Shown piece by piece: positions 3,942 to 32,072 of a DNA stretch of 64,000 nucleotides. Under the pieces are notes generated by a model. The model was not told where the DNA came from, did no database searches, and saw only the letters and a program-made list of their open reading frames with translations. Both the position numbers and the translations under genes were made by a program. The number at the start of each line of letters is the position of its first letter. Positions within the stretch are counted from its first letter, which is position 1. The stretch comes from Agromyces italicus DSM 16388 (GTDB lineage Bacteria > Actinomycetota > Actinomycetes > Actinomycetales > Microbacteriaceae), in NCBI RefSeq assembly GCF_000421545.1, contig NZ_ATXF01000007.1, positions 186,001-250,000 on the forward strand, written 5' to 3'.

Positions 3942-5135
3942 TCAGCGCAGCCGGCCGCCAGCCGCCCAGACCGCCTGCACGTCGAGCTCGTCGCCGAGCA
4001 GCACCGCGTCGGCGGCGTAGCCGCGATCGAGCCGGCCGAGGTCGTGCGCCCGCCCGACGGCCGCAGCGGGCACCGTCGTGAGCGCGGCGATCGCCTGATC
4101 GAGCGGGATGCCGCAGTCGACGACGGCGCGTCGCAGCGCCTCGTCCTGCAGGAGGGTCGACCCCGCGATCGAACCGCCCTCGCGGAGGCGTGCGACGCCC
4201 TGGTCGACGACGACCTCGAGGGTGCCGAGGAGGTACGCGCCGTCGGCCGAGCCCGTCGCCGCCATCGCGTCGGTGATGAGGGCCACACGGCCCGGCGCGC
4301 CCGCGAAGGCGAGCTTCACGACGTCGGGGTGCACGTGCACTCCGTCGTTGATGATCTCGAGCGTGACGTGGTCGGCGTGCATCGCCGCGACGACGGGGCC
4401 GGGTGCGCGATGGTGGATGCCGCGCATGCCGTTGAACGCGTGCGTCAGGATCGTCGCTCCGGCGCCGAACGCCGCGAGCGCTGTGTCGAAGTCGGCCCCG
4501 GTATGCCCGACGGCGACCGCGACGCCCGCGTCGACGAAGCGGCCGATGGCCTCCGTCGCGCCGGCGTGCTCGGGGGCGATCGTGATCTGGCGCAGCGTGC
4601 CGTCGGCCGCGGCGAGGAGGCGCTCGACCGAATCGGCGTCGGCCGTGCGCAGCAGCGACGGGTCGTGCGCGCCGCGGAAGGCATCGTCGAGGAACGGCCC
4701 CTCGAGGTGGGCGCCGAGCACGCGCGGGTCGCGGCGTGCCAGGCGCGCGATGACCGCGAGCTGCCCGGCCAGCCGGTCGACCGAGGCCGTGACGAGCGAG
4801 AGCACCGTGCGGGTCGTGCCGTGGGCGTTGTGCACCGCGAGCACGCGTTCGATGGCCGCCTCGCCCTCGTCGGCCGAGGCGCCGCCGGCGCCGTGGCAGT
4901 GGAGGTCGATGAAGCCGGGCACGAGGAACCGCCCCGAGGCATCCGTCACGCTCGAATCGGAGGTGAGGAGGGCGCGCCAGTCGTCGCCCAGCCCGCGCTC
5001 GGCGACGCTGCCGCCCTCGAAGCGGACCCAGGCGTCGGGCACCGTGTCGAAGCCGCTCACGAGCCGCGCCGAATGGATGATCGTGGGCCCGTGCGGGCCG
5101 GGGGCGGGGATGGTCGGGACGACGGGGGTGCTCAC
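3942..5135 (-). CDS. nagA: N-acetyl-hexosamine-6-phosphate deacetylase (NagA/AgaA type)
   Basis: Removes acetate from GlcNAc-6-P or GalNAc-6-P to give the amino sugar phosphate. The 397 residues form an amidohydrolase barrel: metal motif GFIDLHCHG (about residues 73-81), HLEGPF near 143, VGHTGA near 210, the THAFNGM-HHR block near 225 and LITDAMAATG near 275 with the catalytic Asp. The GTG start directly abuts the TAG stop of the deoR gene, so translation is probably coupled. It is the last gene of an operon that also codes a tagatose-type kinase and aldolase, so GalNAc-6-P is as likely a substrate as GlcNAc-6-P. Sequence alone does not separate the two. Confidence 0.92.
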   Translation of the reverse strand: MSTPVVPTIPAPGPHGPTIIHSARLVSGFDTVPDAWVRFEGGSVAERGLGDDWRALLTSDSSVTDASGRFLVPGFIDLHCHGAGGASADEGEAAIERVLAVHNAHGTTRTVLSLVTASVDRLAGQLAVIARLARRDPRVLGAHLEGPFLDDAFRGAHDPSLLRTADADSVERLLAAADGTLRQITIAPEHAGATEAIGRFVDAGVAVAVGHTGADFDTALAAFGAGATILTHAFNGMRGIHHRAPGPVVAAMHADHVTLEIINDGVHVHPDVVKLAFAGAPGRVALITDAMAATGSADGAYLLGTLEVVVDQGVARLREGGSIAGSTLLQDEALRRAVVDCGIPLDQAIAALTTVPAAAVGRAHDLGRLDRGYAADAVLLGDELDVQAVWAAGGRLR

Positions 5136-5921
5136 CTAAGCAACGATAACGTCGTAGCCGTGGTCGGCGAGTCGTGCGAGCTGCGCCTCGGTCACGCCGG
5201 AGTCGGTGATCAGGGTCGAGAAGAGGCGCCGCGAGCCGATCGCCGCGAACGCCCGCTTGTCGAGCTTCGACGAGTCGGCGACGAGCACGGGGTGCGTCGC
5301 CCGCGAGGCCATGAGCGCGTTCACCGCGGCCTCGCGCTCGTCGTGCGAGGTGGGCCCGATCGTCGGATCGATGCCGTTGACGCCGATGAAGGCGTAGTCG
5401 AGCGTTACGCTGCCGAGCACCGCATCGGTGTAGGCGCCGACGAGCTCGTACGAGCGCGCGTGCACCACGCCGCCGGTCACGACCGTCTTGATCTGCGGCC
5501 GGATCGCGAGCTGCATGGCGATGTTGATCGCGTTCGTGACGACGGTGAGGCTCGGGTCGTTCGCGGGCTCCATGATGTCGGCGCGCGACATGAGCGCCTC
5601 CACGATCGCCGTGGCCGTGGTGCCGCCGCAGAGGCCGATCACGGCGCCGCGGGGCACCATCGCGCTCGCCGCCCGCGCGATCGCCGCCTTCGATTCGGGG
5701 TTCTGCTGGTTCTTGTACCGGATCGGCAGGTCGTACGCCACCGAGTGGGCCACGGCGCCGCCGCGAGTGCGGGTGAGCAGCTGCTGGCTCGCGAGCGCAT
5801 CGAGGTCGCGCCGGGCGGTCGCCGGCGACACGCCGAGCTGGTCGACGATCTGCTCGACCTCGACCTGGCCGCCGTCGGCGAGCAGGTCGAGGACGGCGCT
5901 CAGGCGCTCCGCGCGATTCAT
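5136..5921 (-). CDS. DeoR/GlpR-family regulator of the amino-sugar operon
   Basis: Cytosolic repressor of 261 residues. An N-terminal helix-turn-helix (about residues 5-58; VEVEQIVDQLGVSPATARRDLDAL) precedes a DeoR sugar-phosphate sensor domain (about 75-235) with the GLCGGTTA loop, the VVTNAINIA block and FIGVNGID. Its ATG overlaps the stop of the aldolase gene (ATGA), and its TAG abuts nagA. It probably senses a phosphorylated intermediate of this pathway. A likely target is the inverted repeat TTGCAG-N4-CTGCAA at 9743 in the divergent control region. Confidence 0.88.
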   Translation of the reverse strand: MNRAERLSAVLDLLADGGQVEVEQIVDQLGVSPATARRDLDALASQQLLTRTRGGAVAHSVAYDLPIRYKNQQNPESKAAIARAASAMVPRGAVIGLCGGTTATAIVEALMSRADIMEPANDPSLTVVTNAINIAMQLAIRPQIKTVVTGGVVHARSYELVGAYTDAVLGSVTLDYAFIGVNGIDPTIGPTSHDEREAAVNALMASRATHPVLVADSSKLDKRAFAAIGSRRLFSTLITDSGVTEAQLARLADHGYDVIVA

Positions 5922-6790
5922 CCGATCCCGTCCTTCCCGGTGGTGCCCGCCGTCACCGGCGAGGCGAACAGCCTCAGCATGCGGCCCGCTTCGATGCGCA
6001 CCGCGTCGCGGCCCGCCGCGAAGTACTTGCGAGAGTCTACGGCCGTCGGGTGCTCTGCGAGGTAGCCGCGGATCGCGCCGGTGAAGGCCGCATTCAAGTG
6101 CGTCGACACGTTGATCTTGGTGAGGCCGGCGGCGATGCCCGCCACGATCGTCGCGTCGGGTACGCCGGAGGAGCCGTGCAGCACGAGCGGCACCGGCACG
6201 GCGGCGTGGAGCCGTGCGATCAGCTCGAGGTCGAGCGCGGCGACCCGTTCGGTCATCGCGTGCGACGAGCCGACGGCGACGGCGAGGGCGTCGACCCCGG
6301 TCTCGGCGACGAACAGCGCCGCTTCGGCCGGGTCGGTGCGCACGCCGGGCGCGTGCGCCCCGTCCTTGCCGCCGATCTCGCCGAGCTCGGCCTCGACGAG
6401 CACGCCCGGCCCGGCCGCACGGGCGACGACCCGTCGGGTGGTCGCGACGTTGTCGGCGAAGTCGAGCTTCGCGCCGTCGTACATGACCGAGCCGAAGCCG
6501 CGGTCGATCGCGAGGAGCGCGAGCTCGATGTCTTCCGCGTGGTCGAGGTGCACTGCGACGCTGGCGCTCGAGGCCTCGGCGACGGCGAGCGTCGCCCGTG
6601 CGATCGGCTCGAAGGCGCCGTGGTAGCGCACGCAGTTCTCTGAGAGCTGCAGGATGACCGGCAGCCCGGTGTCCTCCGCTGCGCCGACGAGGGCCTCCGC
6701 CGTCTCGAGATGCAGCACGTTGAACGCGCCGACGGCGGTTCCGGCCGACGCCGCGGCCTCGAGCACCGTGCGGGTGGGGGTGAGCGTCAT
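5918..6790 (-). CDS. Class II fructose/tagatose-bisphosphate aldolase (KbaY/GatY-like)
   Basis: A 290-residue zinc aldolase that would split tagatose-1,6-bisphosphate (or fructose-1,6-bisphosphate) into two trioses. The class II signature is present: VHLDHAED with metal His at about residue 82, VEAELGEIGG at about 135, LHGSSGV at about 205 with a metal His, and INVSTHLN near 232. The length and the motifs resemble GatY/KbaY rather than the longer FbaA. The ATG at 6790 starts where homology begins. The gene overlaps its upstream neighbour pfkB (ATGA) and the downstream deoR by 4 bases. Context with NagA, SIS and PfkB argues for tagatose bisphosphate. Confidence 0.88.
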   Translation of the reverse strand: MTLTPTRTVLEAAASAGTAVGAFNVLHLETAEALVGAAEDTGLPVILQLSENCVRYHGAFEPIARATLAVAEASSASVAVHLDHAEDIELALLAIDRGFGSVMYDGAKLDFADNVATTRRVVARAAGPGVLVEAELGEIGGKDGAHAPGVRTDPAEAALFVAETGVDALAVAVGSSHAMTERVAALDLELIARLHAAVPVPLVLHGSSGVPDATIVAGIAAGLTKINVSTHLNAAFTGAIRGYLAEHPTAVDSRKYFAAGRDAVRIEAGRMLRLFASPVTAGTTGKDGIG

Positions 6791-7818
6791 GCGGTGGTCC
6801 TCGGGTCGGTTTCGGGCGCCGGCTGCGCCTGCGCGGTGTCGGCTGGGTCGGCGGCGGATGCCTCGTGGTCGCCGGTGACGACCTCGGCTTCGAGCCGGGC
6901 GTGGTCGGGGGAGAGCGCGCCCGCGAGGGGCATCAGCACGGCCGAGGCCGACCATGCCGTCGCGCGCCGGGCGAGGGCCGCGCGGGCCGCGACGCCCTCG
7001 GGGCCCGGGTCGCTCACGAGTGAGGGGGTCGCGGCGATCGCGGCGGCGATCGCCGCGACGGCCGCGTCGCCGGCGCCGGTCGCGTTGCCGTGCAGCGGGT
7101 GCGGCAGGCGGGCGCGGACACCGTCGGAGCGGTCGGCGTGCGAGAGCACGAGCAGTCCCTCGGCGCCGAGCGAGACGAGCACGAGCCGCGCGCCCGCGTC
7201 GAGCAGCACGCGGCCGCCCGCGACGGGGTCGTCGTGCCCGGTGACCTCGGCGAGCTCGTCGCGGTTCGGCTTCAGGGCGGTCGCGCCGGCGCGGGCGGAC
7301 GCGAGCAGTCCGGGGCCGCTCGTGTCGACGATGACCGGGGTGCCGGCGGCGACGAGCTCGGCGACGAGCCCCGCGAGCTCGTCGGGGCCGAACCCGGGCG
7401 GCAGGCTCCCGCTGATGATGACCGCCTGGGCGCGTCGGCCCAGCCGGGCCGCCTCGGCGAGGAGGGTCCGTGCCTCGTCGTCGGCGAGGGGTGCGCCCTG
7501 CTCGTTGAGGACGGTCGTGTCGCCGCTCGCCTCGTCGACGAGGGCGAGGCTGCGTCGCGTCTCGCCGTGCACGGGCACGAGGCGGTGGGGGATGCCACTG
7601 CGTTCGAGGTCGTCGGCGAGGCGAGCGCCGGCCGCGCCGCCCGCGGTCGTGAGTGCCAGCACGTCGTGGCCCTCGGCCGCGAGGACCCGCGCGACGTTCA
7701 GCCCCTTGCCGCCGGCGCGCGAGACCCCGGTCGGCACGCGGTGGGTCTCGCCGGGGCGGAGCGCAGCGAGGTGCCAGGTGAGGTCTTCGGCCGGGTTCGG
7801 GGTGACGGTGAGGATCAC
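6787..7818 (-). CDS. PfkB-family 1-phosphofructokinase / tagatose-6-phosphate kinase
   Basis: ATP-dependent sugar phosphate kinase of 343 residues. It opens with ILTVTPNPAEDLTW, the TPN signature of FruK/LacC-type enzymes. Next come SRAGGKGLNVARVL near residue 33, LKPNRDEL near 180 and the GAGDA catalytic loop near 245 with the base Asp. The GTG at 7818 overlaps the TGA of the ROK gene. The last 50 residues are acidic and Ala-rich and look non-conserved. Within this operon the fitting reaction is tagatose-6-P to tagatose-1,6-bisphosphate; fructose-1-P kinase is the alternative. Confidence 0.87.
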   Translation of the reverse strand: MILTVTPNPAEDLTWHLAALRPGETHRVPTGVSRAGGKGLNVARVLAAEGHDVLALTTAGGAAGARLADDLERSGIPHRLVPVHGETRRSLALVDEASGDTTVLNEQGAPLADDEARTLLAEAARLGRRAQAVIISGSLPPGFGPDELAGLVAELVAAGTPVIVDTSGPGLLASARAGATALKPNRDELAEVTGHDDPVAGGRVLLDAGARLVLVSLGAEGLLVLSHADRSDGVRARLPHPLHGNATGAGDAAVAAIAAAIAATPSLVSDPGPEGVAARAALARRATAWSASAVLMPLAGALSPDHARLEAEVVTGDHEASAADPADTAQAQPAPETDPRTTA

Positions 7819-8777
7819 GGTGCCGCCGTTCGTGCCGCCGCGAGGTCGCGTGCGGCGAGTGCGGTGCCGAGCAGTCCCGCGTCGTCGCCGAGTTCGGCAC
7901 GGCGGAGCACGGGCCGGCGATGGAAGCTCAGCAGCTCGTCGATGCGCTCGCCGAGCGGCTCGAAGAGCGCCGGTCCCGCCTGCGAGAGGCCGCCGCCGAT
8001 CACGACCGCCTCGGGGGCGAGGGTCGCGACGAGTCGGGCGATGCCCTCGGCCAGCGCCTCGATCGCGGCGCCCCAGATGCGCTGCGCGAGGGGGTCTCCG
8101 GCCTCGGCCGCGTCGAGCACCACGCGAGCCCCGGCTGCCTCGCGACCGCTCGCCTCGCGGTAGCGGCGCGCGATCGCGCCCGCCGAGGCGATGGTCTCGA
8201 GACATCCGATCGCACCGCAGGGGCAGCGCTCGCCGCGCGGGTCGGCGAGCGAGTGCCCGAACTCGCCCGCGTAGCCGCCGCCCGAATAGGGCTGACCGCC
8301 GATCAGCATCGAGCTCGCGATGCCGGTGCCGATGGCGAGCACCACGGCGTCGTCGTGGCCGCGGGCGGCGCCCAGGCGGTGCTCGGCATCGCCCGCGGCG
8401 CGCACGTCGTGGCCGAACGCGACGGGCAGGCCGAGCGCGCGTTCGGCGAGGTCTCGGATCGGGGCGTCGCGCCATCCCAGGTTCGAGGCGAAGAGCCCGA
8501 GCCCGCGCACCTCGTCGACGAGCCCCGGCACGCTCACGCCCGCTGCGGCGACCTCGATCTCGGGGTGGTCGTCGCGCAGCGCACGGGCGAGCTCGGCGAA
8601 CGATTCGGCGATCGCGCGGGCGGGGTCGGCGTCGTCGCGCGCGGTCGGCGTGCGGCGGAGCCCGAGCACCTGCCCCGAGACATCCACCATCGCCGATTTC
8701 GTATCGGTGCCGCCGACGTCGAAGGCGAGGACGGCGGCACCAGGGCCAAGCGGTGCCGGCCGCGCGGTGTCGGTCAT
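7815..8777 (-). CDS. ROK-family sugar kinase (candidate GalNAc/GlcNAc kinase)
   Basis: Cytosolic kinase of 320 residues. The ATP-binding start is AFDVGGTDTKSA (residues 18-29). The ROK zinc motif is CPCGAIGCLE near 188, with GHS in EFGHSLADPRG just before it. IGGGLSQAG lies near 260. No helix-turn-helix precedes it, so it is an enzyme and not a regulator. Because the importer next door has no PTS parts, a kinase is needed to phosphorylate the imported free amino sugar, and this is the best candidate. It overlaps the pfkB gene by 4 bases and follows the SIS gene by 4 bases. Confidence 0.88.
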   Translation of the reverse strand: MTDTARPAPLGPGAAVLAFDVGGTDTKSAMVDVSGQVLGLRRTPTARDDADPARAIAESFAELARALRDDHPEIEVAAAGVSVPGLVDEVRGLGLFASNLGWRDAPIRDLAERALGLPVAFGHDVRAAGDAEHRLGAARGHDDAVVLAIGTGIASSMLIGGQPYSGGGYAGEFGHSLADPRGERCPCGAIGCLETIASAGAIARRYREASGREAAGARVVLDAAEAGDPLAQRIWGAAIEALAEGIARLVATLAPEAVVIGGGLSQAGPALFEPLGERIDELLSFHRRPVLRRAELGDDAGLLGTALAARDLAAARTAAP

Positions 8778-8781
8778 CGGG

Positions 8782-9687
8782 TCAGCCCTCGAGGATCACC
8801 GAGCGCGTGAGGTTGCGCGGCTGGTCGGGGTCGAGGCCCCGGGCGAGGGCCCGGGCGAGCGACACGCGCTGCGCGCGCACGAGGTCGGCCATCGGATCGA
8901 GCGTGCTCGTCTCGAATCGCGCGCCGGTCGCGGCGACGTCGCCGGCGAGCCCCTCGGGTGCGGCGCCGAACTGCCAGGTCACGCGGCCGGGTGCGGCGAT
9001 CGAGATCGGGCCGTGGCGGTACTCCATCGACGGGTACGACTCGGTCCACGACTGCGAGGCCTCGCGCATCTTCAGCGCCGCCTCGTGCGCGAGGCCCACC
9101 GAGAAGCCGCGGCCGAGGAAGGTGTATTGCTCGGCGTCGACGAGCGTGGGGTCGAGGTCTTCTGCGAGCGCCCGCTCGGCGTCGGCGATCACGGGGTCGA
9201 GGTCCTCGCCGAGCGAGGACCGGAAGAGCGCGAGCGCCGTGGTCGCGAAGCGGGTCTGCACGACCGACTGCTCGTCGGCGAAGGGCAGGGTGATCGCGTC
9301 GTCGACCAGATCGACGAGCGGGGAGCCGGCGTCGCCGATGACGCCGATCGTGCGCACCTGCCCGCGGACGTCGCCGACGAGCTGGAGCACCTCGGTCGTC
9401 GTGCCGGAGCGGGTGAGCGCGACGACGGCGTCGTAGCCGCGGAGCGGGAACGCCTCGGACGCCGCGAACGCGTCGGTCTGGCCGTGCCCGCCCGACTCGC
9501 GGAGCCAGGCGTAGGACTGGGCCATGAACCACGAGGTGCCGCAGCCGACGACGGCGATGCGCTCGCCGCGGCGCGGGAGGCGCGACTGCTCGTCGCGGAG
9601 CTCGGCTGCGTGAGCCCACGTCTCGGGCTGCGAGGCGAGCTCGGCGGCCATGTGTGCGGCGGGGGCGGAAGCGGAAGACAGACTCAC
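8782..9687 (-). CDS. SIS-domain sugar isomerase/deaminase (AgaS-like)
   Basis: A 301-residue protein with two sugar-isomerase domains. The first (about residues 25-150) has VVGCGTSWFMAQS and LTRSGTTTEV; the second (about 175-290) has YTFLGRGFSVGLAHEAALKMREA and EYRHGPIS. These match the isomerase half of GlmS and the AgaS/NagB-II group, which deaminate amino-sugar 6-phosphates. The GTG at 9687 was chosen because GGAG lies 5 bases upstream and the longer in-frame extension has no homology. It is the first gene of the leftward operon. With PfkB and aldolase it suggests GalN-6-P to tagatose-6-P. Confidence 0.85.
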   Translation of the reverse strand: MSLSSASAPAAHMAAELASQPETWAHAAELRDEQSRLPRRGERIAVVGCGTSWFMAQSYAWLRESGGHGQTDAFAASEAFPLRGYDAVVALTRSGTTTEVLQLVGDVRGQVRTIGVIGDAGSPLVDLVDDAITLPFADEQSVVQTRFATTALALFRSSLGEDLDPVIADAERALAEDLDPTLVDAEQYTFLGRGFSVGLAHEAALKMREASQSWTESYPSMEYRHGPISIAAPGRVTWQFGAAPEGLAGDVAATGARFETSTLDPMADLVRAQRVSLARALARGLDPDQPRNLTRSVILEG

Positions 9688-10048: not shown

Positions 10049-11299
10049 ATGAAGAAGTCACTGCGCTTCGGCACCGCGCTCGCGCTCGCGGCCACCGCTT
10101 CGCTGACGCTCGCGTCCTGCGGCTTCGGCGGCGGCGACGGCGGCGGCGACTCGGCCGGCGGCAAGACCACACTCGACCTGCTCGTGCCGAGCTACTCCGA
10201 CAACACCCAGGGCCTCTGGGAGGACGTGATCACGGGCTTCGAGGCCCAGAACGAGGACATCGACGTCAAGCTCGAGGTCCAGTCGTGGGACAACCTCGAA
10301 ACGGTCATCACCACGAAGATCCAGGGCGGAGAAGCCCCCGACATCTACAACGGCGGCCCCTTCGCCGGCTTTGCGGCGGATGAGCTGCTCTACCCGGCCG
10401 AAGACGTGGTCTCGCCCGAGACCTTCAGCGACTTCCAGGACTCGTTCCTCGCGAACGCCGAGGTCGACGGCACCGCCTACGCCCTCCCGCTGATCGCCTC
10501 GGCGCGTGCCCTGTTCGTGAACAACGCCCTCCTCGAGCAGGCGGGCGTGAGCGCGGCGCCGACCACCTGGGACGAGCTGCTCGATGCGGCGACCAAGGTC
10601 TCGAAGCTCGGCGGCGGCGTCGCGGGTTACGGCATGCCCCTCGGCTCCGAAGAGGCGCAGGCCGAGGCGGCCGTGTGGCTCTGGGGCGGCGGCGGCACCT
10701 TCGGCGACGCCGAGGCGATCACCGTCGACGACCCGGCCAACCTCCCCGGTGCCGAGCAGATCAAGAAGATGATCGACGCGGGCGCGACCCAGGCCGACCC
10801 CGGCTCGACCGACCGCACCCCGCTCATGGAGATCTTCGTCCAGGGCAAGATCGGCATGCAGGTCGGCCTCCCGCCGACCGTCGGCCAGATCGAGGACGGC
10901 AACCCCGACCTCGACTACTCGATCGTCCCGATCCCGACGAAGGACGGCTCGCCCTTCACGCTCGGCGTCATGGACCAGCTCATGGCCTTCCAGAACGACG
11001 GCGACAAGCAGGAGGCGATCACCAAGTTCTTCGACTACTACTACTCGGCCGACGTCTACGTGCCGTGGGTGCAGGCCGAGGGCTTCCTCCCCGTCACGAA
11101 GTCGGGTGCCGAGCAGCTGCAGGACGACGAGGCGCTCGCACCGTTCCTCGCGGTGCTGCCCGACGCGCAGTTCTACCCGAGCTCGAACCCCAAGTGGCAG
11201 GCGACCGACGGCGCGTTCAAGTCGCTCTTCGGCCAGATCCAGTCGAAGCCGGCGCAGGACGTGCTGACCGAGATCCAGAAGCAGGTCGACGCGAGCTGA
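10049..11299 (+). CDS. ABC sugar importer 1, substrate-binding lipoprotein
   Basis: Extracellular solute-binding protein of 416 residues, family 1 (MalE-like). A signal peptide runs from residue 1 to about 24 and ends in the lipobox LASC, so it is anchored to the outer face of the membrane. A glycine-rich linker then leads into the binding fold (YSDNTQGLWEDVITGFEAQN opening). The ATG at 10049 has GAGGA 8 bases upstream. An in-frame start at 9992 is rejected because it would bury the signal peptide. Two permeases follow. Divergence from the GalNAc-type operon suggests an amino sugar or GalNAc-containing oligosaccharide as substrate. Confidence 0.92.
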   Translation: MKKSLRFGTALALAATASLTLASCGFGGGDGGGDSAGGKTTLDLLVPSYSDNTQGLWEDVITGFEAQNEDIDVKLEVQSWDNLETVITTKIQGGEAPDIYNGGPFAGFAADELLYPAEDVVSPETFSDFQDSFLANAEVDGTAYALPLIASARALFVNNALLEQAGVSAAPTTWDELLDAATKVSKLGGGVAGYGMPLGSEEAQAEAAVWLWGGGGTFGDAEAITVDDPANLPGAEQIKKMIDAGATQADPGSTDRTPLMEIFVQGKIGMQVGLPPTVGQIEDGNPDLDYSIVPIPTKDGSPFTLGVMDQLMAFQNDGDKQEAITKFFDYYYSADVYVPWVQAEGFLPVTKSGAEQLQDDEALAPFLAVLPDAQFYPSSNPKWQATDGAFKSLFGQIQSKPAQDVLTEIQKQVDAS

Positions 11300-11345
11300 C
11301 GCTCGCCTTCCTCCCACACGGAAAGGGTTCGGTGAACCTCGCACC

Positions 11346-12323
11346 ATGAGCTCCACGACCGACGTATCACCGAACCCGACGGGGGCGGCCGCAGGCCGCC
11401 CCCGTCCCGGGGGTGCGAAAGCGCCCGCGCGCCGCGGCAAGCCCGGGGGGCGCGACCTCGCGGCCGCGCTGCCCTGGATCACGCCCGCGCTGATCCTCAT
11501 CTTCGGCGTCGTGCTGTTCCCGGCCGTCGTCATGTTCTACAACTCGACCCGCGACATCTCGCTGTCCGGGCTCGACAAGGGATCCGTCGGCTTCGACAAC
11601 TACGTCGAGGTCTTCCAGTTCCCCTACTTCTGGCCGATCTTCTTCCGCACGATCGTCTGGGTCGTCGTGGTCGTGGCGTTCACGGTCGTGATCTCGCTCG
11701 GCCTCGCCCAGATCCTCAACAAGGCCTTCCCGGGTCGTCAGCTCGTGCGGCTCGTCGTGATCATCCCGTGGGCGGCCTCGGTCGTCATGACGACGATGGT
11801 CGTCTACTACGGCCTCGAACCGTACTTCGGCATCATCAACAAGTTCCTCGTCGACATCGGACTCGTCGACACCCCCGAGGGCTACGGCTGGACGAAGAAC
11901 CCGGCGACCGCGTTCATGTGGTCGATCATCGTCGCGATCTTCGTGTCGCTGCCGTTCACGACGTACACGATCCTCGCGGGACTCGCGACGGTGCCGGGCG
12001 ACACGCTCGAGGCCGCGAAGATGGACGGCGCGGGCGCCGCGCGCACCTACTTCACGATCGTGCTGCCGCAGCTGCGCGGCGCGCTCAGCGTCGCGGTGCT
12101 CATCAACATCATCAACGTCTTCAACTCGCTGCCGATCCTCCGGGTGATGACCGGGTCGATACCCGGCTACGACGCCGACACGATCATGACGATGATCTTC
12201 AAGTACATCCAGAACCAGCACAAGGTCGACGTCGCGTCGGCGCTCTCGGTCGTCGCCTTCATCATCGTCATCGTGATCGTCGCGGTGTACGTGAAGGTCG
12301 TCAAGCCGACGAAGGAGGTCTGA
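11346..12323 (+). CDS. ABC sugar importer 1, MalF-type permease
   Basis: Membrane permease of 325 residues with about six hydrophobic spans after a Pro-Arg-Gly-rich cytosolic N-terminus (about residues 1-38). The EAA loop that contacts the ATPase is present near residue 220 (EAAKMDGAGAARTYFTIVLPQL). It is 46 bases after the binding-protein gene and 2 bases before the next permease start region, so it forms one operon. No ATPase gene is present; family practice is a shared MsiK-type ATPase encoded elsewhere. Confidence 0.92.
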   Translation: MSSTTDVSPNPTGAAAGRPRPGGAKAPARRGKPGGRDLAAALPWITPALILIFGVVLFPAVVMFYNSTRDISLSGLDKGSVGFDNYVEVFQFPYFWPIFFRTIVWVVVVVAFTVVISLGLAQILNKAFPGRQLVRLVVIIPWAASVVMTTMVVYYGLEPYFGIINKFLVDIGLVDTPEGYGWTKNPATAFMWSIIVAIFVSLPFTTYTILAGLATVPGDTLEAAKMDGAGAARTYFTIVLPQLRGALSVAVLINIINVFNSLPILRVMTGSIPGYDADTIMTMIFKYIQNQHKVDVASALSVVAFIIVIVIVAVYVKVVKPTKEV

Positions 12324-12325
12324 CC

Positions 12326-13511: not shown

Positions 13512-13539
13512 TTGAATTGGCGGCCATTCGGAGTATTGT
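13512..13539 (+). promoter_or_regulatory. Promoter of importer 2
   Basis: TTGAAT and TATTGT are spaced by 16 bases. The -10 overlaps the start of the candidate LacI operator at 13537, an arrangement suited to repression. Confidence 0.55.
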
Positions 13540-13552
13540 GAACGCAAACATT
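13537..13552 (+). promoter_or_regulatory. Candidate LacI-family operator, copy 1
   Basis: TGTGAACGCAAACATT. The identical 16 bases lie on the minus strand at 29154-29169, just after the -10 of the GH35 gene and next to lacI. The outline TGT-N3-CG-N3-ACA with a central CG is typical of LacI-family sites. Confidence 0.65.
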
Positions 13553-14967: not shown

Positions 14968-15048
14968 TCGAGTCGCCCGCCTGACATCCAGTGGCGGAGG
15001 GCGCGACGACGTCGTGCCCTCCGCCGCACCTCGGAAGGGGAGAACCAC

Positions 15049-21029: not shown

Positions 21030-21034
21030 CCACT

Positions 21035-21094: not shown

Positions 21095-21126
21095 TTCTAT
21101 TAATAAAGCTTGATACTTAATTAATT
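21095..21126. promoter_or_regulatory. AT-rich island, candidate ROK operator (copy 2)
   Basis: It contains CTATTAATAAA (21097-21107), identical to the core at 17080, then TTAATTAATT. It lies about 140 bases before importer 3. Such AT-rich runs are very rare in this window, so the shared word is unlikely to be chance. Confidence 0.5.
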
Positions 21127-21265
21127 CGACCACCAGGCACGTGACACCGTCGCGCAGGCCCGGGGAGAACCTGCACAGCACGACGACGTGATCACGCTCA
21201 CGCGCCGTGAGCGCGGCTCCTCCGGCCGAGCAGGAGGCCGAATGCACACCGACAGAGGAGATCAC

Positions 21266-22588: not shown

Positions 22589-22593
22589 CCCAG

Positions 22594-22624
22594 GGGGTGG
22601 GCGCTCGCTGTGAGCGCCCACCCC
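22594..22624 (+). terminator. Intra-operon hairpin after the binding-protein gene
   Basis: GGGGTGGGCGCTC and its exact complement (13 bp) flank a 5-base loop between the binding-protein stop and the first permease. As the operon clearly continues, it probably attenuates read-through or protects the 5' mRNA, giving more binding protein than permease. Confidence 0.65.
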
Positions 22625-22656
22625 TTGTCCGACCCGCACCCGATCCGGAGAACGCC

Positions 22657-24428: not shown

Positions 24429-26068
24429 AATTGGATCCGGTTCTGCTCCCTCGGCCGCAGGTTTTCGAACGAACGGCGGGCGAGTTCACCCTGAATCGCT
24501 CCGTGCGTGCCGCTGGCGTCGCGGAGGCCGTCGACGCGATCGCGCTCGTGAGCGAGCGGCTCTGGTCGTCGTCGCGAATCCGCGTCGACCATGCAGAGAC
24601 GGATGCCGCGGGCCTCCGCTTCATCGCCGATCCGGCGCTCGCGGCGGAGGCCTACGTCCTCGAGGTCGGGCCGTCGTGCGTCGAGGTGCGGGCGTCGTCG
24701 TCGGCGGGGTTCGGTCATGGTGCCGTCACGCTGCTGCAGCTCATGGGCGACGGGGTGTGGCGTTCGGCCACGGCAGGCGCACGCGCGATCACCATCCCCG
24801 CGTGCCGGATCGAAGACGAGCCGCGTTTCGGATGGCGCGGGCTCATGCTCGACGTGGCACGGCACTTCCTCCCGGTGCGCGAGGTGCTTCGTCTGCTCGA
24901 CCTGATGGCGATGCACAAGTACAACCGGCTGCACTTCCACCTCACCGACGATCAGGGCTGGCGCGTCGAGATCAAGGCCTGGCCGCGTCTGACGGAGGTG
25001 TCGTCGTGGCGCAGCCGAAGCCAGGTGGGCGCCGATGACGCCACCGCGCCCGAGAACGACCGGCCGCACGGCGGCTTCTACACACGGGCCGACATCGCCG
25101 AGATCGTCGCCTACGCGGCGAGCCGCGGCATCACGGTCGTCCCCGAGATCGACGTTCCCGGGCACTCGCAGGCCGCCATCGCCGCGTATCCGCACCTCGG
25201 GATCCCGACGGCCGACGGTCGCGACCCCGAGGTCGAGGTGTGGCCGCGGTTCGGGGTGAGCGGCTTCCCGCTCAACGCGGAGGAGCCGACCGTCGAGTTC
25301 TTCCGCACGGTGCTCGACGAGCTGCTCGAGTTGTTCCCATCGGTCGACATCGGCCTGGGCGGCGACGAAGTTCCCTCGGGGCCCTGGGAGGCGGATCCGC
25401 GCTCGTGGGAGCTCGCGCGCGTACGTGGACTGGGACATCCGCGCGAGCTGCAGTTCTGGTTCCTCGACCAGCTCAACGCCCATATCCGAAGCAGGGGCCG
25501 GCGCATGCTGGCGTGGGACGAGATCCTCGAGCACGACGAGCCCGAGGGCGTCACGGTGCTCGGCTGGCGCGGCGAGACGGGTGTTCGCACCGCGTTGCGG
25601 CGCGGGCTCCCGGTCGTGGCGTGTCCGGACAACGCGCTCTACTTCGACTACCGGCAGTCGGACGACCCTCGCGAGCCGGTCCCGGTCGGCGTCGTCGTCG
25701 ATCTGCGCACCGTGTACGCGTCCGATCCCATTCCGGCCGGAGCGACGGCCGAGGAGGCGGCGCTCGTGCGCGGCGCGCAGGCGAATCTCTGGACCGAGCA
25801 CCTCGACTCGTCGCGGGCGGTCGACTACATGCTGTGGCCCCGCGCGTGCGCGCTCGCCGAGGTGCTGTGGAGCGGCCCTGGCGGAGACTTCGACGAGTTC
25901 GACCGCCGCCTCGAGACGCATCTGCGACGTCTTGCAGAGCGTGGCGTGGAGTACCGCAGGGCCGATGGCCCGCTACCGTGGCAGGAGCGCCCCGGTGTGG
26001 CCGGGCGCGTTCAGGATCAGGCGGAACGTCAGCGGGAGATCGACCTGCTGACCGCGACGATCGCATAG
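24425..26068 (+). CDS. Cytoplasmic GH20 beta-N-acetylhexosaminidase
   Basis: 547 residues. A GH20b-like N-terminal domain (about residues 1-120) is followed by the GH20 barrel (about 135-480): LMLDVARHFLPV near 140, LHFHLTDDQGWR near 172, PEIDVPGH near 240 and the catalytic Asp-Glu pair in GLGGDEVPSG near 315. No signal peptide is present, so it cleaves HexNAc from sugars already imported, consistent with its overlap (ATGA) with importer 3. It is the intracellular counterpart of the GH20 lipoprotein at 30411. Confidence 0.92.
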   Translation: MKLDPVLLPRPQVFERTAGEFTLNRSVRAAGVAEAVDAIALVSERLWSSSRIRVDHAETDAAGLRFIADPALAAEAYVLEVGPSCVEVRASSSAGFGHGAVTLLQLMGDGVWRSATAGARAITIPACRIEDEPRFGWRGLMLDVARHFLPVREVLRLLDLMAMHKYNRLHFHLTDDQGWRVEIKAWPRLTEVSSWRSRSQVGADDATAPENDRPHGGFYTRADIAEIVAYAASRGITVVPEIDVPGHSQAAIAAYPHLGIPTADGRDPEVEVWPRFGVSGFPLNAEEPTVEFFRTVLDELLELFPSVDIGLGGDEVPSGPWEADPRSWELARVRGLGHPRELQFWFLDQLNAHIRSRGRRMLAWDEILEHDEPEGVTVLGWRGETGVRTALRRGLPVVACPDNALYFDYRQSDDPREPVPVGVVVDLRTVYASDPIPAGATAEEAALVRGAQANLWTEHLDSSRAVDYMLWPRACALAEVLWSGPGGDFDEFDRRLETHLRRLAERGVEYRRADGPLPWQERPGVAGRVQDQAERQREIDLLTATIA

Positions 26069-26118: not shown

Positions 26119-27306
26119 GTGCGAGATGCTGGGGAAGCGGAAGCCCCGCGCGCCGATCGGGCGACCGACATCCTCTCGCTCACTCCGGCGGACCTTCTCG
26201 AGATGCGGCGCAGCGACCCCAAGCCCACGGCGTCGGCGCACGAGGGCCGTCAGCACAACCTCGCGGTGATCCTGCGGCTGCTGTATCAGCACGGTCCGAA
26301 GTCCCGTCCTGAGCTTGCACGTCTCAGCGGGCTGTCCACGCCGACGGCCTCCGCGCTCGTCGCCGAACTCGTCGATGCGGGCACCGTGCGCGACCTCGGC
26401 ATCGTAGCCGAGGCACGGGTCGGAAAGCCCGCCGCCAAGGTCGACATCGCCGCGGACCACAACCTCTGCATCGTGCTCGACCTCACGCATCACGGGGCTT
26501 TCACGGGGGCGGCGATCGATCTGAACGGCGCCGTGGTCGACCGGGTGCAGGTCGACATCGGCGACGCGCAGGGCGAGACGGCCGTCGAGCATGCCGTCGA
26601 GCTCGCCAACCTGCTCATCGAGCGCGCCGCCGCTCAGGTCATCGGCATCGGCGTGGCCTCGCCGGGGCTGGTCGACGATGAGGGGCGCGTCCGCGTCGCC
26701 GACGGGTTGCGGTGGCGCGACGTGCGTCTGGCAGACGTGCTGCGCCGCCGCACCGGAGTTCCCGCGGTCGTCGGCAACGATGTGAACCTGCTCGCTCTGG
26801 GGCTGCGCCGGTTCCGTGCGCGTTCCGGTCGCGATGCCGTCGTCGTCGCGATCGACAACGGCGTCGGCGCGGCCGTGCTCGTGAATGGGCAGCCGGTGCT
26901 CGGTGAGCAGTTCGCCGCGGGCGAGATCGCGCATCTCACGGTGGATCCGGGCGGTGCGCCGTGCGCGTGCGGCCGCCGGGGCTGCCTCGACGTCGTCGTC
27001 GGCGCGCCGCATCTGGCGCGCAGCCTGGCCGCGGAAGGCGCGGGGATCCTCGAACCCGCCGGGCGGGTGCTGGGCGAGGTGCTCGCTCCCGTGCTCAACA
27101 TCCTGAATATCAACGTCGTTGTCGTGCTGGGCCCGCCCGCGCTCGTCGACGGCCCCTTCGCGCGCGGGGTCGTCGACGGTGTGGCCTCGCGGCTGCGGCC
27201 GACGATCGTCGAAGGCCTGGAGATCGAGGTCAGGTCGGGCGACCCGGATCTCGTGCTGCTCGGCGCAGCCGCCGCGGTGATGGAGACGCAGCTCGGCGTG
27301 CATTGA
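26119..27306 (+). CDS. ROK-family transcriptional repressor
   Basis: 395 residues. An N-terminal winged helix (about residues 35-95; SRPELARLSGLSTPTASALVAELVDAG) precedes a ROK sugar-sensing domain (about 110-390) with IGIGVASPGLVDDEG, VVGNDVNLLALG and the zinc motif CACGRRGCLD. The GTG at 26119 has GAGGAGGAGG 6 bases upstream; the longer open frame is a shadow of the GH20 gene. It lies at the end of the importer 3-GH20 operon. It is the best candidate to bind the AT-rich word found at 17080 and 21097, and so to link the sialidase fusion to this operon. Confidence 0.88.
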   Translation: MRDAGEAEAPRADRATDILSLTPADLLEMRRSDPKPTASAHEGRQHNLAVILRLLYQHGPKSRPELARLSGLSTPTASALVAELVDAGTVRDLGIVAEARVGKPAAKVDIAADHNLCIVLDLTHHGAFTGAAIDLNGAVVDRVQVDIGDAQGETAVEHAVELANLLIERAAAQVIGIGVASPGLVDDEGRVRVADGLRWRDVRLADVLRRRTGVPAVVGNDVNLLALGLRRFRARSGRDAVVVAIDNGVGAAVLVNGQPVLGEQFAAGEIAHLTVDPGGAPCACGRRGCLDVVVGAPHLARSLAAEGAGILEPAGRVLGEVLAPVLNILNINVVVVLGPPALVDGPFARGVVDGVASRLRPTIVEGLEIEVRSGDPDLVLLGAAAAVMETQLGVH

Positions 27307-29153: not shown

Positions 29154-29174
29154 AATGTTTGCGTTCACATTATG
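29154..29174 (-). promoter_or_regulatory. GH35 promoter -10 and LacI-type operator, copy 2
   Basis: On the minus strand the -10 CATAAT is followed directly by GTGAACGC. TGTGAACGCAAACATT (29154-29169) matches 13537-13552 base for base and in the same position relative to the -10. No good -35 was found, which fits an activator or weak promoter. Confidence 0.65.
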
Positions 29175-29234: not shown

Positions 29235-29240
29235 GGGCGC

Positions 29241-30260
29241 ATGCCCCGCCGTTCAGCAGAGGATCGCGCTCCGAGCCAGGTCGACGTCGCACGCGCCGCC
29301 GGTGTGTCGACCCAGACCGTCTCCCGGGTCATCTCGGGGCACCCGAACGTGCGCCCCGAGACCGCGCGCCGCGTGATGGCCGCCGTCGACGCCGTCGGCT
29401 ACCGGTGGCACGCTGCAGCGGCGTCGCTCGCGTCGGGGCGCACGCGCACGATCGGAGTCATCCTCGTCTCCACCGCCCGCTATTCGACCAGCGCGATCCT
29501 GCTCGGGGCCGAGGGCGCCGCCGCCGAGGCCGGCTACACCGTCATCACCGCGAGCGTGCCGCAGCACTCAGGTCCGGCGGCGTTCACCGACGCCTTCGAC
29601 CGGCTGGAACGTCAGGGCTCCGAGGGCATCGTCGTGCTCGCGCCGGTCGGGTTCCTCGCCGAAGCCCTCGGCAGCCGGGTGGAACGCACGCCCACGGTCG
29701 GTCATCGGCAATCCGACGGCATCGGCGCGGATGCCCTCATCGATCAGCGCGCCATCGCGCGCATGGCGACCGAGCACTTGCTTGATCTCGGGCACCGCAC
29801 GGTCTGGCACGTCTCGGGCGACGAATTCTGGCAGGAGTCCAGCGCCCGTCGCGACGCATGGGAGGCAGTGCTCCTCGAGCGCGGTGCGACGCCGCCGCCG
29901 GTGATCCCGGGTGACTGGTCGCCCGCGTCGGGCTATCGCGCTGGTCGCACGATCGCCGCGATCCCCGATGCCACCGCGGTGTTCGTCTCGAGCGACGAGA
30001 TGGCGTTCGGCGTGATCCGAGCACTGCACGAGGCCCGACGAGCCGTGCCGGGAGAGATCTCGGTGGTGAGCGTCGATGACATCGCCCTTGCCGCCTACGC
30101 CACCCCGGCGCTGACGACCGTGCGCCAGCCCTTCGAGGAGGTCGGCCGAGCCGCAGCCATGCGCGTGATCGAACTGATCGAGCAACGCGAACCCGTCTCG
30201 GTCGAACCGCTGCGACCCGAGCTCGTCCTCCGGGCGTCGACCGCTCCGCCCAAGGGTTGA
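29241..30260 (+). CDS. LacI-family transcriptional regulator
   Basis: 339 residues. The LacI helix-turn-helix (about residues 13-60; QVDVARAAGVSTQTVSRVISGHPNV with hinge region LASGRTRTIGVI) precedes a periplasmic-binding-like sensor (about 70-335) that ends VRQPFEEVGRAAAM. The ATG at 29241 is chosen because it precedes the helix-turn-helix closely and lies 6 bases after a -10 box. The gene diverges from the GH35 beta-galactosidase. The identical operator words here and before importer 2 make it the likely common repressor, with a Gal-containing sugar as inducer (inference). Confidence 0.9.
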   Translation: MPRRSAEDRAPSQVDVARAAGVSTQTVSRVISGHPNVRPETARRVMAAVDAVGYRWHAAAASLASGRTRTIGVILVSTARYSTSAILLGAEGAAAEAGYTVITASVPQHSGPAAFTDAFDRLERQGSEGIVVLAPVGFLAEALGSRVERTPTVGHRQSDGIGADALIDQRAIARMATEHLLDLGHRTVWHVSGDEFWQESSARRDAWEAVLLERGATPPPVIPGDWSPASGYRAGRTIAAIPDATAVFVSSDEMAFGVIRALHEARRAVPGEISVVSVDDIALAAYATPALTTVRQPFEEVGRAAAMRVIELIEQREPVSVEPLRPELVLRASTAPPKG

Positions 30261-30410
30261 CGCCCGGCGCGCGGTGATCGCGTCGCGACCTCGCGCGTGA
30301 CGTCGGCGAAAAACCGGTCGATGGCCCCGGCGCGCTCCGTCGGTGCGGGAACTCCTGAATCGATGTCTTCGAGCCGGGCTGCAGCGCAGGGCGGCGCCGC
30401 GAGCGCGCCG

Positions 30411-32072
30411 CTACTCGGCCCAGTCGACCCCGCCGACCTTGCGGTAGGCGACGCCCAGCCCGTCGAGGTGGGCGCCGAGCGTCGGCAGCCGTGAACGGAA
30501 GTCCTCCTCGTCGCGGGCGTCGGCGGGCGACCAGGCGACCTCGGCGATCGCGGCGATGCGGGGGAACACCATGAACTCGAAGTCGGGCGGGTTCGAGAGC
30601 GTCTCGGTCCAGACCGAGGCGACGACCCCGAGTATGTCGGACTCGTCGAGCCCGCCGACCGTCTCCTCGGGTCGCCAGGCGTAGGCCTCCTCGAGCGTGA
30701 TCGTGTCGGCCCACCGCGTGCCGAGCTCGGTGCCGAGGGGGCCTGCGGGGCGGTCGGGGTACATCATGTCGAGATAGGTCCGGTCGGCCGGCGCGAGCAC
30801 GAGCCGCCCGCCCTGCTCGAGGAACGAGTGCGCCTGCCCGGCAGACTCCGGGTACGGGCGCGCGGGTTCGTCGCGACGGTTCGCGGGCATCTCGTGCGCG
30901 GCAGTCAGATCCCAGTAGTGCCCGACGGTGCCCGGCGGCAGCTCGTTCGAGGCACCCATCTCGTGGTAGGCGATGACGGTCTTGTCCGTCGCGGCGGCGG
31001 CGGCGGTGATGCGGCGCGTCAGGTCGAGGTAGTCGTCGGGCCTCGTCGCGAGCGGTTCGTCGCCGCCGACGTGGATCCAGGGACCGGGCGTCATCTCGGC
31101 CACCTCGCCGAGCACGTCGGCGAGGAACCGGTCGGTCACCTCGGCACGCGCCGGGTCGGCGCAGAGCGACGAGAACCCGACCTCGATGCCCTCGTAGGGC
31201 GGCGGGGCGACCCCGTCGCAGTTGAGCTCGGGGTATGCGCTGAGTGCGGCGTTCGTGTGTCCGGGCAGGTCGATCTCGGGCACGACGGTGATGAACCGCT
31301 CGGCCGCGTAGTCGACGATGCGGCGGTAGTCGTCCTTCGTGTAGAAGCCGCCGCCGTCGCCGCCGACCGAGGTCGAGGCGCCGATGCCGGTGAGCTCGGG
31401 CCACGAGTCGATCCGGATGCGCCAGCCCTGGTCGTCGGTGAGGTGCAGGTGCAGCACGTTCAGCTTCATGAGCGCCATCCGGTCGAGGTGCTTCTCGATG
31501 TAGTCGACCGGTGAGAAATGACGGGCGACGTCGACGAGCGACGCGCGGTAGGCGAAGCGGGGCTGATCGACGATGGATGCCGCCGGCACCCGCCAGCCGC
31601 CCTCGGGCTCGCCGGCGCCGGACTCCTCGATCGCGCCGGGCAGCATCTGCCTGAGCGACTGGGTTCCCCAGAACAGGCCGGCCGGTTCACCGGCGGCGAT
31701 GCGCACGCCGCCGTGACCGCTCTCGAGCACGTACGCCTCGTCGCCCTCCACCGCCGGGTCGATGACGAGTTCGATGTCGCCGTCGGGGGATGCCTCGGGC
31801 TCGGCCTCCTCGACGGGCAGGTCGTACCCCGTCGCCGCCCGCAGCGGGGCCGCGAAGGTCTCGGCGACGGCGGCGGCACCGTCGCCCGACACGACGAGCC
31901 GGGTGCGCTCGCCGAGCGTGAAGTCGCCTCGGTCGGTCAGCTCGAACCGCGCCGGCGCGGGCACGAGCCCGGAGAACGGGTCGTCGCCGGAGTCGGCGGA
32001 GCAGCCCGTGAGCGCGAAGAGCGACGCGGCGGCGACGACGACGGCGGTGCGGCTGACGGAGGCACTCGGCAT
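30411..32072 (-). CDS. GH20 beta-N-acetylhexosaminidase lipoprotein
   Basis: 553 residues. The signal peptide ends in the lipobox LTGC near residue 23, so the enzyme is tethered outside the cell. A GH20b domain (about 35-150) precedes the GH20 barrel (about 160-520) with SLVDVARHFSPV, LHLHLTDDQGWR, PEIDLPGH and the catalytic pair in WIHVGGDEPL near 340. Two ATG codons lie in tandem. The one at 32072 is chosen because GAGGA is 7 bases upstream of it and only 4 from the other. It can strip terminal GlcNAc/GalNAc before uptake. It stands alone, convergent to lacI, with 150 bases between in which no clear terminator was seen. Confidence 0.92.
   Translation of the reverse strand: MPSASVSRTAVVVAAASLFALTGCSADSGDDPFSGLVPAPARFELTDRGDFTLGERTRLVVSGDGAAAVAETFAAPLRAATGYDLPVEEAEPEASPDGDIELVIDPAVEGDEAYVLESGHGGVRIAAGEPAGLFWGTQSLRQMLPGAIEESGAGEPEGGWRVPAASIVDQPRFAYRASLVDVARHFSPVDYIEKHLDRMALMKLNVLHLHLTDDQGWRIRIDSWPELTGIGASTSVGGDGGGFYTKDDYRRIVDYAAERFITVVPEIDLPGHTNAALSAYPELNCDGVAPPPYEGIEVGFSSLCADPARAEVTDRFLADVLGEVAEMTPGPWIHVGGDEPLATRPDDYLDLTRRITAAAAATDKTVIAYHEMGASNELPPGTVGHYWDLTAAHEMPANRRDEPARPYPESAGQAHSFLEQGGRLVLAPADRTYLDMMYPDRPAGPLGTELGTRWADTITLEEAYAWRPEETVGGLDESDILGVVASVWTETLSNPPDFEFMVFPRIAAIAEVAWSPADARDEEDFRSRLPTLGAHLDGLGVAYRKVGGVDWAE

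What the first reader, a model, noticed from the sequence alone, without database searches (positions are those of the whole stretch)
3942..32072. A complete-looking uptake and breakdown system for sialylated Gal/HexNAc glycans
Seen: a secreted sialidase-GH16 protein, a GH20 lipoprotein, cytoplasmic GH20 and GH35, three ABC importers, NagA, ROK kinase, SIS, PfkB and class II aldolase, plus galK/galT/galM at 42897-47057. Known: these families cover trimming, import, cleavage and the Leloir and tagatose routes. Inference: together they form a mucin O-glycan or ganglio-type glycan utilisation locus in an actinobacterium, which I do not know as a described system. Missing: sialic acid catabolism genes.
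Basis: partly seen in the sequence, partly recalled or inferred. Interest (0 to 1): 0.85.

Follow-up and report, generated by a model that had tools for sequence, protein, structure and literature searches.

The report
Nested sugar-uptake modules with fused sialidase
An actinobacterium has stacked several sugar-uptake gene sets, each with its own regulator gene, and an unusual two-headed enzyme (one half removes sialic acid, the other is built to cut sugar chains) into one stretch of DNA, probably to eat sialic-acid-capped glycans.

Summary
Related genomes resolve 3942-32072 into four modules. M1 (g04-g12, g25: GalNAc-type operon, importer, GH20 lipoprotein) is an older core; in three of five same-genus genomes g25 follows g12 with one unrelated gene between. 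M2 (g13-15, g23, g24: importer, GH35, LacI) is a unit in four other genera. M3 (g18-22: importer, GH20, ROK regulator) is a unit in another genus. M4 (g17) is a secreted sialidase-GH16 fusion. M4+M3 lie inside M2, and M2 inside M1. Candidate operators fit: an identical LacI-type 16-mer precedes g13 and g23, an AT-rich 11-mer precedes g17 and g18. Parts that looked missing are elsewhere in the genome: a probable sialic acid catabolic cluster, a GH101 locus paralogous to M2, NagB, a UgpC-type ATPase, a GH29 fucosidase. The GH16 half belongs to a distinct clade that, on an Enterococcus faecalis plasmid, is fused to a sialidase in reverse order; this favours sialylated host glycans over beta-glucan, but every substrate is inferred. 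New variant of a known kind.

The parts
3942..9651 (-). M1a: operon g09-g04: SIS protein (GalN-6-P deaminase/isomerase role inferred), ROK-family kinase, PfkB kinase, class II aldolase, DeoR regulator, NagA-type deacetylase
   Evidence: gene set around the SIS gene counted in 35 loci that I chose from the matches
10049..13255 (+). M1b: importer 1 (g10 SBP, g11 and g12 permeases), divergent from the operon, no ATPase
   Evidence: 80-92% identity in four same-genus genomes, L150-L153
30411..32075 (-). M1c: g25 GH20 lipoprotein; follows g12 with one unrelated gene (129-298 aa) between in three same-genus genomes
13654..16931 (+). M2a: importer 2 (g13 SBP, g14 and g15 permeases)
   Evidence: beside g23/g24 relatives in L210-L214
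27338..29104 (-). M2b: g23 GH35 beta-galactosidase, best solved match 4mad (B. circulans BgaC)
29241..30260 (+). M2c: g24 LacI-type regulator
13537..13552 (+). Candidate LacI-type operator TGTGAACGCAAACATT upstream of g13
   Evidence: 2 sites in the window at up to 3 mismatches, 0.04 expected; a pair of sites at the same two promoters in 5 of 5 M2 loci of other genera, at up to 3 mismatches
29154..29169 (-). Identical candidate LacI-type operator upstream of g23, in the g23-g24 intergenic region
17199..21029 (+). M4: g17, secreted GH33 sialidase (res. 59-408) + NPCBM-associated domain (417-479) + domain without Pfam match (505-700) + GH16 (about 703-1005) + C-terminal region
17080..17090 (+). 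AT-rich candidate ROK operator CTATTAATAAA upstream of g17
   Evidence: 0.01 matches expected at up to 2 mismatches
21097..21107 (+). Same element upstream of g18
21242..24428 (+). M3a: importer 3 (g18 SBP, g19 and g20 permeases)
   Evidence: same order in L236 at 82, 85 and 92%
24431..26068 (+). M3b: g21 GH20 beta-hexosaminidase, no signal peptide seen
26119..27306 (+). M3c: g22 ROK-family regulator with HTH
42897..47057 (.). galK, galT (-), DeoR regulator and galM (+): Leloir entry; present in same-genus genomes G142, G280 and G240 without g13-g24

Best explanation
The locus is a nested mosaic of four modules with three regulator genes (DeoR, LacI, ROK) that together widen one core pathway. 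Core M1 takes GalNAc by a ROK-family kinase, NagA-type deacetylase, SIS deaminase/isomerase, PfkB kinase and class II aldolase to triose phosphates. M2 imports Gal-capped oligosaccharides and removes Gal with GH35. M3 imports HexNAc-capped oligosaccharides and removes HexNAc with GH20. M4, placed under the same element as M3, is a secreted enzyme whose sialidase half uncaps the glycan so that its GH16 half can cut inside the chain and supply M2 and M3. Gal goes to galK/galT/galM, GlcNAc to NagB, Neu5Ac to a nan-type cluster elsewhere, and core-1 disaccharide is released by GH101 from another locus. Shown here: gene content, nesting relative to other genomes, conserved sequence elements at the promoters, a distinct sialidase-linked GH16 clade, and the presence of the other genes. 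Inferred: every substrate, which regulator binds which element, and gain rather than loss as the direction of change.
For: Nesting: in G142 (L150), G280 (L151) and G240 (L153) g12 is followed, after one unrelated gene, by g25, with no g13-g24; 3 of 5 same-genus genomes, the other two not showing this arrangement (G079 partial, G194 no SIS match). M2 is contiguous in 5 loci of 4 other genera, L210-L214, at 60-86%. M3 is in the same order in L236 at 71-92%. Promoter elements. Composition: M2-M4 GC 0.68-0.69 against 0.72 for M1 and 0.73 for other genes. GH16: query, two MAG relatives and three E. faecalis copies form one clade, 100/100, in a tree of 52; in one E. faecalis ORF GH16 and GH33 are joined in reverse order. 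GH16 O-glycanases released no sialylated products and a sialidase was added in those assays (PMC7419316, passages). GalNAc route: within 8 kb of the SIS gene an aldolase like g06 in 32 of 35 loci, DeoR 34, ROK 29, PfkB 26, NagA 21; 4 of 4 GH101 genomes have the SIS gene, itself in 89 of 299 (hypergeometric 0.0075). GH35 nearest 4mad at 3e-139, next 1e-109. A separate canonical NagB is over its cut-off.
Against: GH16 specificity is undecided: phmmer gives an O-glycanase structure first (6e-28) but a beta-1,3-glucanase at 1e-26; Foldseek puts laminarinases and glucanases in ranks 1-13 and 6t2n at 14. The SIS protein fails the AgaS model (22.7 of 529.2 bits) and its solved relatives are named glucosamine-fructose-6-P aminotransferase or glucosamine-6-P deaminase. 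The PfkB and aldolase miss the LacC and GatY cut-offs; the best solved aldolase matches are fructose-bisphosphate aldolases, AgaY comes fourth. The lyase of the nan-type cluster has dapA, not nanA, as best NCBIfam model. The AT-rich element could be promoter sequence. In L037 and L038 (contigs of 10.4 and 6.7 kb) no M2/M3 relative is near the g17 relative. No repeat or integrase marks the junctions (longest shared words 11 bases). The co-occurrence test ignores relatedness (by genus 3 of 3, 0.026), and the counts can include paralogues.
Confidence: 0.6

Rival explanations
1. One integrated, co-regulated mucin O-glycan or ganglioside utilisation locus.
For: The activities lie within 28 kb. GH101, nan-type genes, NagB and a fucosidase exist in the genome.
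Against: The core occurs without g13-g24 in three same-genus genomes. M2 and M3 are free-standing units elsewhere. Different promoter elements. GH101 and the nan-type genes lie on other contigs.
Confidence: 0.15
2. A fungal or arthropod cell-wall locus: GH16 is a beta-1,3-glucanase, M3 handles chitobiose, and the sialidase is incidental.
For: A secreted GH18 chitinase with CBM5/12 is at 60311-62863. One diverged M3 unit (L241) is followed by a PF01182 (NagB-type) gene. Top Foldseek matches are laminarinases.
Against: The GH16 belongs to a clade apart from the other GH16s of the family, linked to sialidases in two phyla. The chitinase has an 85% relative in G142, which lacks g13-g24 at this place. 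M1 and M2 are not explained.
Confidence: 0.17
3. The sialidase-GH16 protein acts on the cell's own nonulosonate-containing wall polymer, made by the neuA/neuB-like genes at 36008-38148.
For: NeuA-type cytidylyltransferase fused to a KDN-9-phosphatase-like domain, NeuB and DUF6716 lie 15 kb away.
Against: The synthesis cluster is conserved in three same-genus genomes without a g17 match; the close neighbours of g17 are importers.
Confidence: 0.05

Closest known systems
aga (GalNAc) catabolic pathway of Proteobacteria and Firmicutes (AgaA/NagA, AgaS, LacC or AgaZ, tagatose-bisphosphate aldolase; PMC12118421 passages; AgaS as signature gene in PMC5583593 passages)
   Same: Deacetylase, SIS protein, PfkB kinase, class II aldolase and a DeoR regulator with AgaR as best model in one operon
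   Different: ROK-family kinase and ABC importer in place of PTS; short 289-aa SIS that fails the AgaS model; GH20 lipoprotein nearby
GH16 endo-acting mucin O-glycanases of Bacteroides and Akkermansia (PMC7419316; passages, and sections 9, 13 and 14 read)
   Same: GH16 fold, ExDxxE motif, two of the three finger-3 tryptophans; sialidase included in those assays
   Different: First finger-3 Trp is Phe; own clade with an APT.ER..GE / SN..GTPHFYY segment; joined to a sialidase; activity unknown
Micromonospora viridifaciens sialidase (1eut; name NedA recalled)
   Same: Aligned over residues 59-504, E 3e-118; residues recalled as catalytic are kept
   Different: Followed by a domain without Pfam match, GH16 and a further C-terminal region
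Bifidobacterial galacto-N-biose/lacto-N-biose route (recalled; only weak SBP hits to 2z8d seen)
   Same: GH101-released disaccharide imported by an ABC transporter, as inferred for locus C6
   Different: Hydrolytic GH35 plus aga-type catabolism inferred here; a phosphorylase was not searched for
Enterococcus faecalis plasmid-borne 1641-aa and 2442-aa proteins (LR962562; one of four such records examined)
   Same: Same d1-GH16-d3 module at 36-47% local identity; one also carries GH33 in the same ORF
   Different: YSIRK-type signal, up to two GH16 copies, GDSL hydrolase and a thiol-cytolysin C-terminal-type domain; GH16 before GH33

Membership tests
aga-type GalNAc pathway | AgaS-family SIS deaminase/isomerase | tested here: not met
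   TIGR02815 22.7 bits against cut-off 529.2; PF01380 met; solved relatives are named glucosamine-type enzymes. So: works like (inferred), not filed as a member
aga-type GalNAc pathway | GalNAc-6-P / GlcNAc-6-P deacetylase | tested here: inconclusive
   TIGR00221 220.7 against cut-off 225.65
aga-type GalNAc pathway | Tag6P kinase and TagBP aldolase | tested here: inconclusive
   PfkB passes the 1-PFK subfamily (223.1 against 216.4) but not LacC (131.4 against 409.55); aldolase passes PF01116 but not GatY (224.8 against 383). Best solved kinase match is Tag6P kinase 2jgv; best solved aldolase matches are fructose-bisphosphate aldolases, AgaY 1gvf fourth
aga-type GalNAc pathway | AgaR-type regulator | tested here: inconclusive
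   AgaR NF040755 is the best model, 158.1 against cut-off 260
GH33 sialidase (1eut type) | Catalytic Arg triad, Asp, Tyr and Glu in alignment with 1eut | tested here: met
   alignment; residue roles recalled
GH16 subfamily 3 | ExDxxE and three-Trp finger-3 motif | tested here: inconclusive
   GELDIME present; PAFW and SWP kept, first Trp is Phe; three-Trp motif described in PMC7419316
GH16 mucin O-glycanase | Endo-beta-galactosidase activity on (poly)LacNAc | not testable with these tools
   Sequence and fold do not decide
GH35 beta-1,3-galactosidase (BgaC type) | Closest to BgaC among GH35 with solved structures | tested here: met
   4mad 3e-139, next 1e-109; 4mad is B. circulans BgaC in PMC6566704 (passages); linkage specificity not tested
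GH101 core-1 O-glycan locus | GH101 catalytic domain with its companion domains | tested here: met
   L247:7143-11441 with PF12905, PF18080, PF17974, PF17451 and PF21466; catalytic residues not checked
Sialic acid catabolism (nan) | NanE, ROK kinase, NanA-type lyase and importer | tested here: inconclusive
   NanE over its cut-offs; ROK family and Dpp-type importer present; the lyase-family protein is below every NCBIfam cut-off shown, best dapA 163.7 of 206.15, nanA 109.7 of 382

The most novel reading that the evidence does not exclude
The GH16 half of g17 founds a sialidase-coupled clade of endo-glycosidases, found in Actinomycetota and on Enterococcus plasmids and joined to GH33 in both orders, whose activity on sialylated host glycans would be new for GH16. 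In this bacterium it was recruited by an operator into a nested, stepwise-assembled glycan locus.
Probability: 0.35. Interest if true: 0.75.

Novelty: new variant of a known kind. Interest (0 to 1): 0.55.

Why it matters
The locus suggests how a glycan-utilisation locus of a Gram-positive bacterium can be built stepwise: whole units with their own promoter elements placed between convergent genes, with free-standing versions still visible in relatives. The sialidase-GH16 clade offers a direct biochemical test for a new endo-glycosidase specificity and possibly a tool for releasing glycans. The M1 operon is a candidate GalNAc pathway with a short SIS enzyme that the family models tested do not name; SIS relatives (E up to 1e-25, more distant operon types included) are in 89 of 299 sampled family genomes.

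Tried and rejected
GH16 substrate from sequence or fold: phmmer and Foldseek do not separate laminarinase from O-glycanase. Mobile-element marks at five junctions: only 11-base shared words; no tRNA in the window. Plasmid origin: megablast of 13256-30400 against plasmids gave two records covering 1% each. Phages: two records, one weak GH33 and one weak GH16 match. Domain 505-700: no Pfam match even at E 10. Own-wall turnover by g17 is held unlikely because the nonulosonate cluster is conserved without g17.

Papers: searches were seen as listings with the starts of abstracts, as was; the single paper was read in passages. In those listings I saw no sialidase-GH16 fusion and no GalNAc or mucin locus of a Microbacteriaceae. 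This is weak evidence of absence: most listed papers were not opened and only openly licensed papers are held. PMC8126724 (passages) concerned other enzymes named Bga and was not used.

Limits of counts: the genome search scored at most the two best candidates per genome for g17, so a second copy could be missed; one search used six exact peptide patterns and kept 80 of 257 relatives, so further fusions may exist; of four E. faecalis plasmids one was examined. Gene calling with the host codon model failed on low-GC loci (L168 mostly, L175, L176, L179, L180), and tblastn counts were used for all 35 loci. The output was cut by the tool. In the GH16 tree L103 and L070 have long branches and their places are unsure.


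Full report
What is there. The window lies at G000:C7:186001-250000 of a 3.73-Mb, 12-contig genome, 99.9% complete. From 3942: a six-gene operon on the minus strand (SIS, ROK-family kinase, PfkB, class II aldolase, DeoR, NagA-type), then three importers (SBP and two permeases each, no ATPase), a secreted sialidase-GH16 protein (g17), a GH20 without signal peptide, a ROK regulator, a GH35, a LacI regulator and a GH20 lipoprotein. The SBPs g10, g13 and g18 and g25 have lipobox-like N-termini in the translations (motif recalled).

The locus is nested. In three of the five same-genus genomes sampled (G142, G280, G240; L150, L151, L153) the order is g03-g12, one unrelated gene of 129-298 aa, g25, glyA, folD and, after 0 to 2 other genes, g29-g31; g13-g24 is absent there. 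Of the other two, G079 (L152) has g05-g12 but differs beyond them, and G194 had no SIS match. The core, g04-g12 with g25 nearby, also appears in other genera (L158, L162, L163). Within g13-g24, the set g13-g14-g15-g23-g24 is itself a contiguous unit in five loci of four other genera (L210-L214; 60-86% identity); in L214 it directly follows genes like galM (33%), galT and galK. The set g18-g22 is a unit in the same order in L236 (82, 85, 92, 71, 71%); diverged forms occur in L237, L241 and L242, in L241 followed by a PF01182 (NagB-type) gene. So g17-g22 sits between convergent g15 and g23, and that whole block sits between convergent g12 and g25. G245 carries the aga-type operon, M2, M3 and a plain sialidase at four different places (L169, L210, L236, L217). 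The direction, gain in this lineage rather than loss in the others, is inferred. It fits the lower GC of M2-M4 (0.677-0.694 against 0.720 for M1 and 0.729 for the other genes) and the lack of close M2 and M3 relatives in the same genus (best same-genus matches 54% for GH35 and 54% for GH20).

Promoter elements. TGTGAACGCAAACATT occurs exactly twice in the window at up to 3 mismatches (0.04 expected), upstream of g13 and of g23. A pair of such sites (up to 3 mismatches) is at the same two promoters in 5 of 5 M2 loci of other genera (gene positions); the paralogous C6 locus L247 has none. The LacI unit thus appears to have kept both operators although 10.4 kb now separate its halves. CTATTAATAAA occurs twice without mismatch, upstream of g17 and g18 (0.01 matches expected at up to 2 mismatches). 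The g18 relative in L236 has a similar AT-rich stretch, and diverged M3 units (L237, L241, L242) and the GlcNAc-type cluster upstream of the window (L118) have TTAGTAAA-type elements near ROK-regulator or SBP genes. I infer that g22 controls g17 and g18-g22 together; a promoter coincidence is not excluded. No perfect copy was found upstream of the g17 relatives in L037 and L038.

Core pathway. In 35 SIS loci that I chose from the matches, an aldolase like g06 is within 8 kb in 32, DeoR in 34, a ROK protein in 29, PfkB in 26 and NagA in 21 (paralogues can be counted). A GlcN-6-P deaminase would not need a dedicated kinase and aldolase, and a canonical NagB, over its cut-off, lies just upstream of the window in a GlcNAc-type cluster (L118). 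This points to GalN-6-P and tagatose-6-P. Against it: the SIS protein fails the AgaS model, the PfkB and aldolase do not reach the LacC and GatY cut-offs, the solved relatives of the SIS protein are glucosamine-type enzymes and those of the aldolase are mostly fructose-bisphosphate aldolases. GH101 is in 4 of 299 family genomes, and all four have the SIS gene, itself in 89 of 299 (hypergeometric 0.0075, or 0.026 by genus, relatedness ignored).

Parts elsewhere. Locus C6 (L247) reads LacI, SBP, permease, permease, GH35, GH101; it is a paralogue of M2 (33-51%) and is conserved in G142 (L216, 74-92%) (domains). The GH101 loci of G028 and G126 also hold C6-type SBP and permease genes. A nan-type cluster on C5 holds NanE, a ROK protein, a lyase-family protein and a Dpp-type importer; the lyase is below the nanA cut-off and its best model is dapA. 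A UgpC-type ATPase over its cut-off lies at C7:275488 and could serve all three importers (inferred). A GH29 fucosidase is at C6:416274. In relatives, plain sialidases sit by nan-type or NagB-like genes in four of six loci, as I read the translations by eye (L189, L218, L219, L220 against L217, L222).

The fusion enzyme. The sialidase half aligns with 1eut (E 3e-118) with the residues I recall as catalytic kept. GH16 carries GELDIME and two of three finger-3 tryptophans (motif in PMC7419316, section 13). Among 299 family genomes and 396 phylum genomes (E up to 1e-50, at most two candidates scored per genome) only this genome has a match spanning both halves. In named genomes, L037 (a Microbacterium MAG, 76%) and L038 (an Actinomycetales MAG, 75%) have it, in other surroundings. 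A Hydrogenedentota contig (L070) has one 626-codon frame with distant sialidase and GH16 matches. Four E. faecalis plasmids match 95% of the 505-1187 part at 49%. In the one examined, LR962562, typed as conjugative, one ORF has two copies of the d1-GH16-d3 module and the next has one copy followed by a GH33 domain. The tree of 52 GH16 domains puts the three actinobacterial and three Enterococcus copies together at 100/100 on a long stem, apart from the other Microbacteriaceae-family GH16s sampled. PMC7419316 reports that the GH16 O-glycanases released no sialylated products and that a sialidase was included in the assays (passages), which would give the fusion a reason. Sequence and fold searches do not settle the substrate (model mean pLDDT 68 over 516 residues, best in the GH16 strands).

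Judgement. The claim of one complete system is replaced by nested modules, probably under separate control, plus parts on other contigs. The families are known; the assembly, the short-SIS operon and the sialidase-linked GH16 clade are the new elements.

Noticed in passing
36008-39473: Nonulosonate synthesis cluster: NeuA/PseF-like cytidylyltransferase fused to a KDN-9-phosphatase-like domain, NeuB, DUF6716 putative glycosyltransferase; conserved in same-genus genomes G142, G280 and G240.
   Followed up: partly
34696-35781 (-): Gene with HSDR_N-type domain and low GC3 (0.78) between folD and the nonulosonate cluster; no relative at this place in L150, L151 or L153.
   Followed up: no
60311-62863 (+): Secreted GH18 chitinase with ChiC and CBM5/12 domains, 85% relative in G142.
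   Followed up: no
L256:2247-14717 (E. faecalis plasmid LR962562): Two giant surface-type proteins: one with two GH16 copies; one with GH16, GH33, GDSL hydrolase and a thiol-cytolysin C-terminal-type domain.
   Followed up: partly
L182-L185, L187, L188: More distant SIS operons in other Microbacteriaceae-family genomes (SIS 46-53%) with a class II aldolase in most, PfkB-like kinases and, in several, a protein that I recall as GH4-like.
   Followed up: no
L118 (G000:C7:178-186 kb): GlcNAc-type cluster just upstream of the window: ROK regulator, importer, GH3, ROK-family kinase, NagB.
   Followed up: partly
L247:7143-11441 (G000:C6): GH101 gene with F5/8-type and NedA-like binding domains; GH101 is rare in the family sample, 4 of 299 genomes.
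   Followed up: yes
L070:1286-3163: A Hydrogenedentota MAG has one open frame with sialidase-like (37%) and GH16-like (27%) matches, perhaps an independent pairing; its GH16 lies outside the fusion clade on a very long branch.
   Followed up: partly
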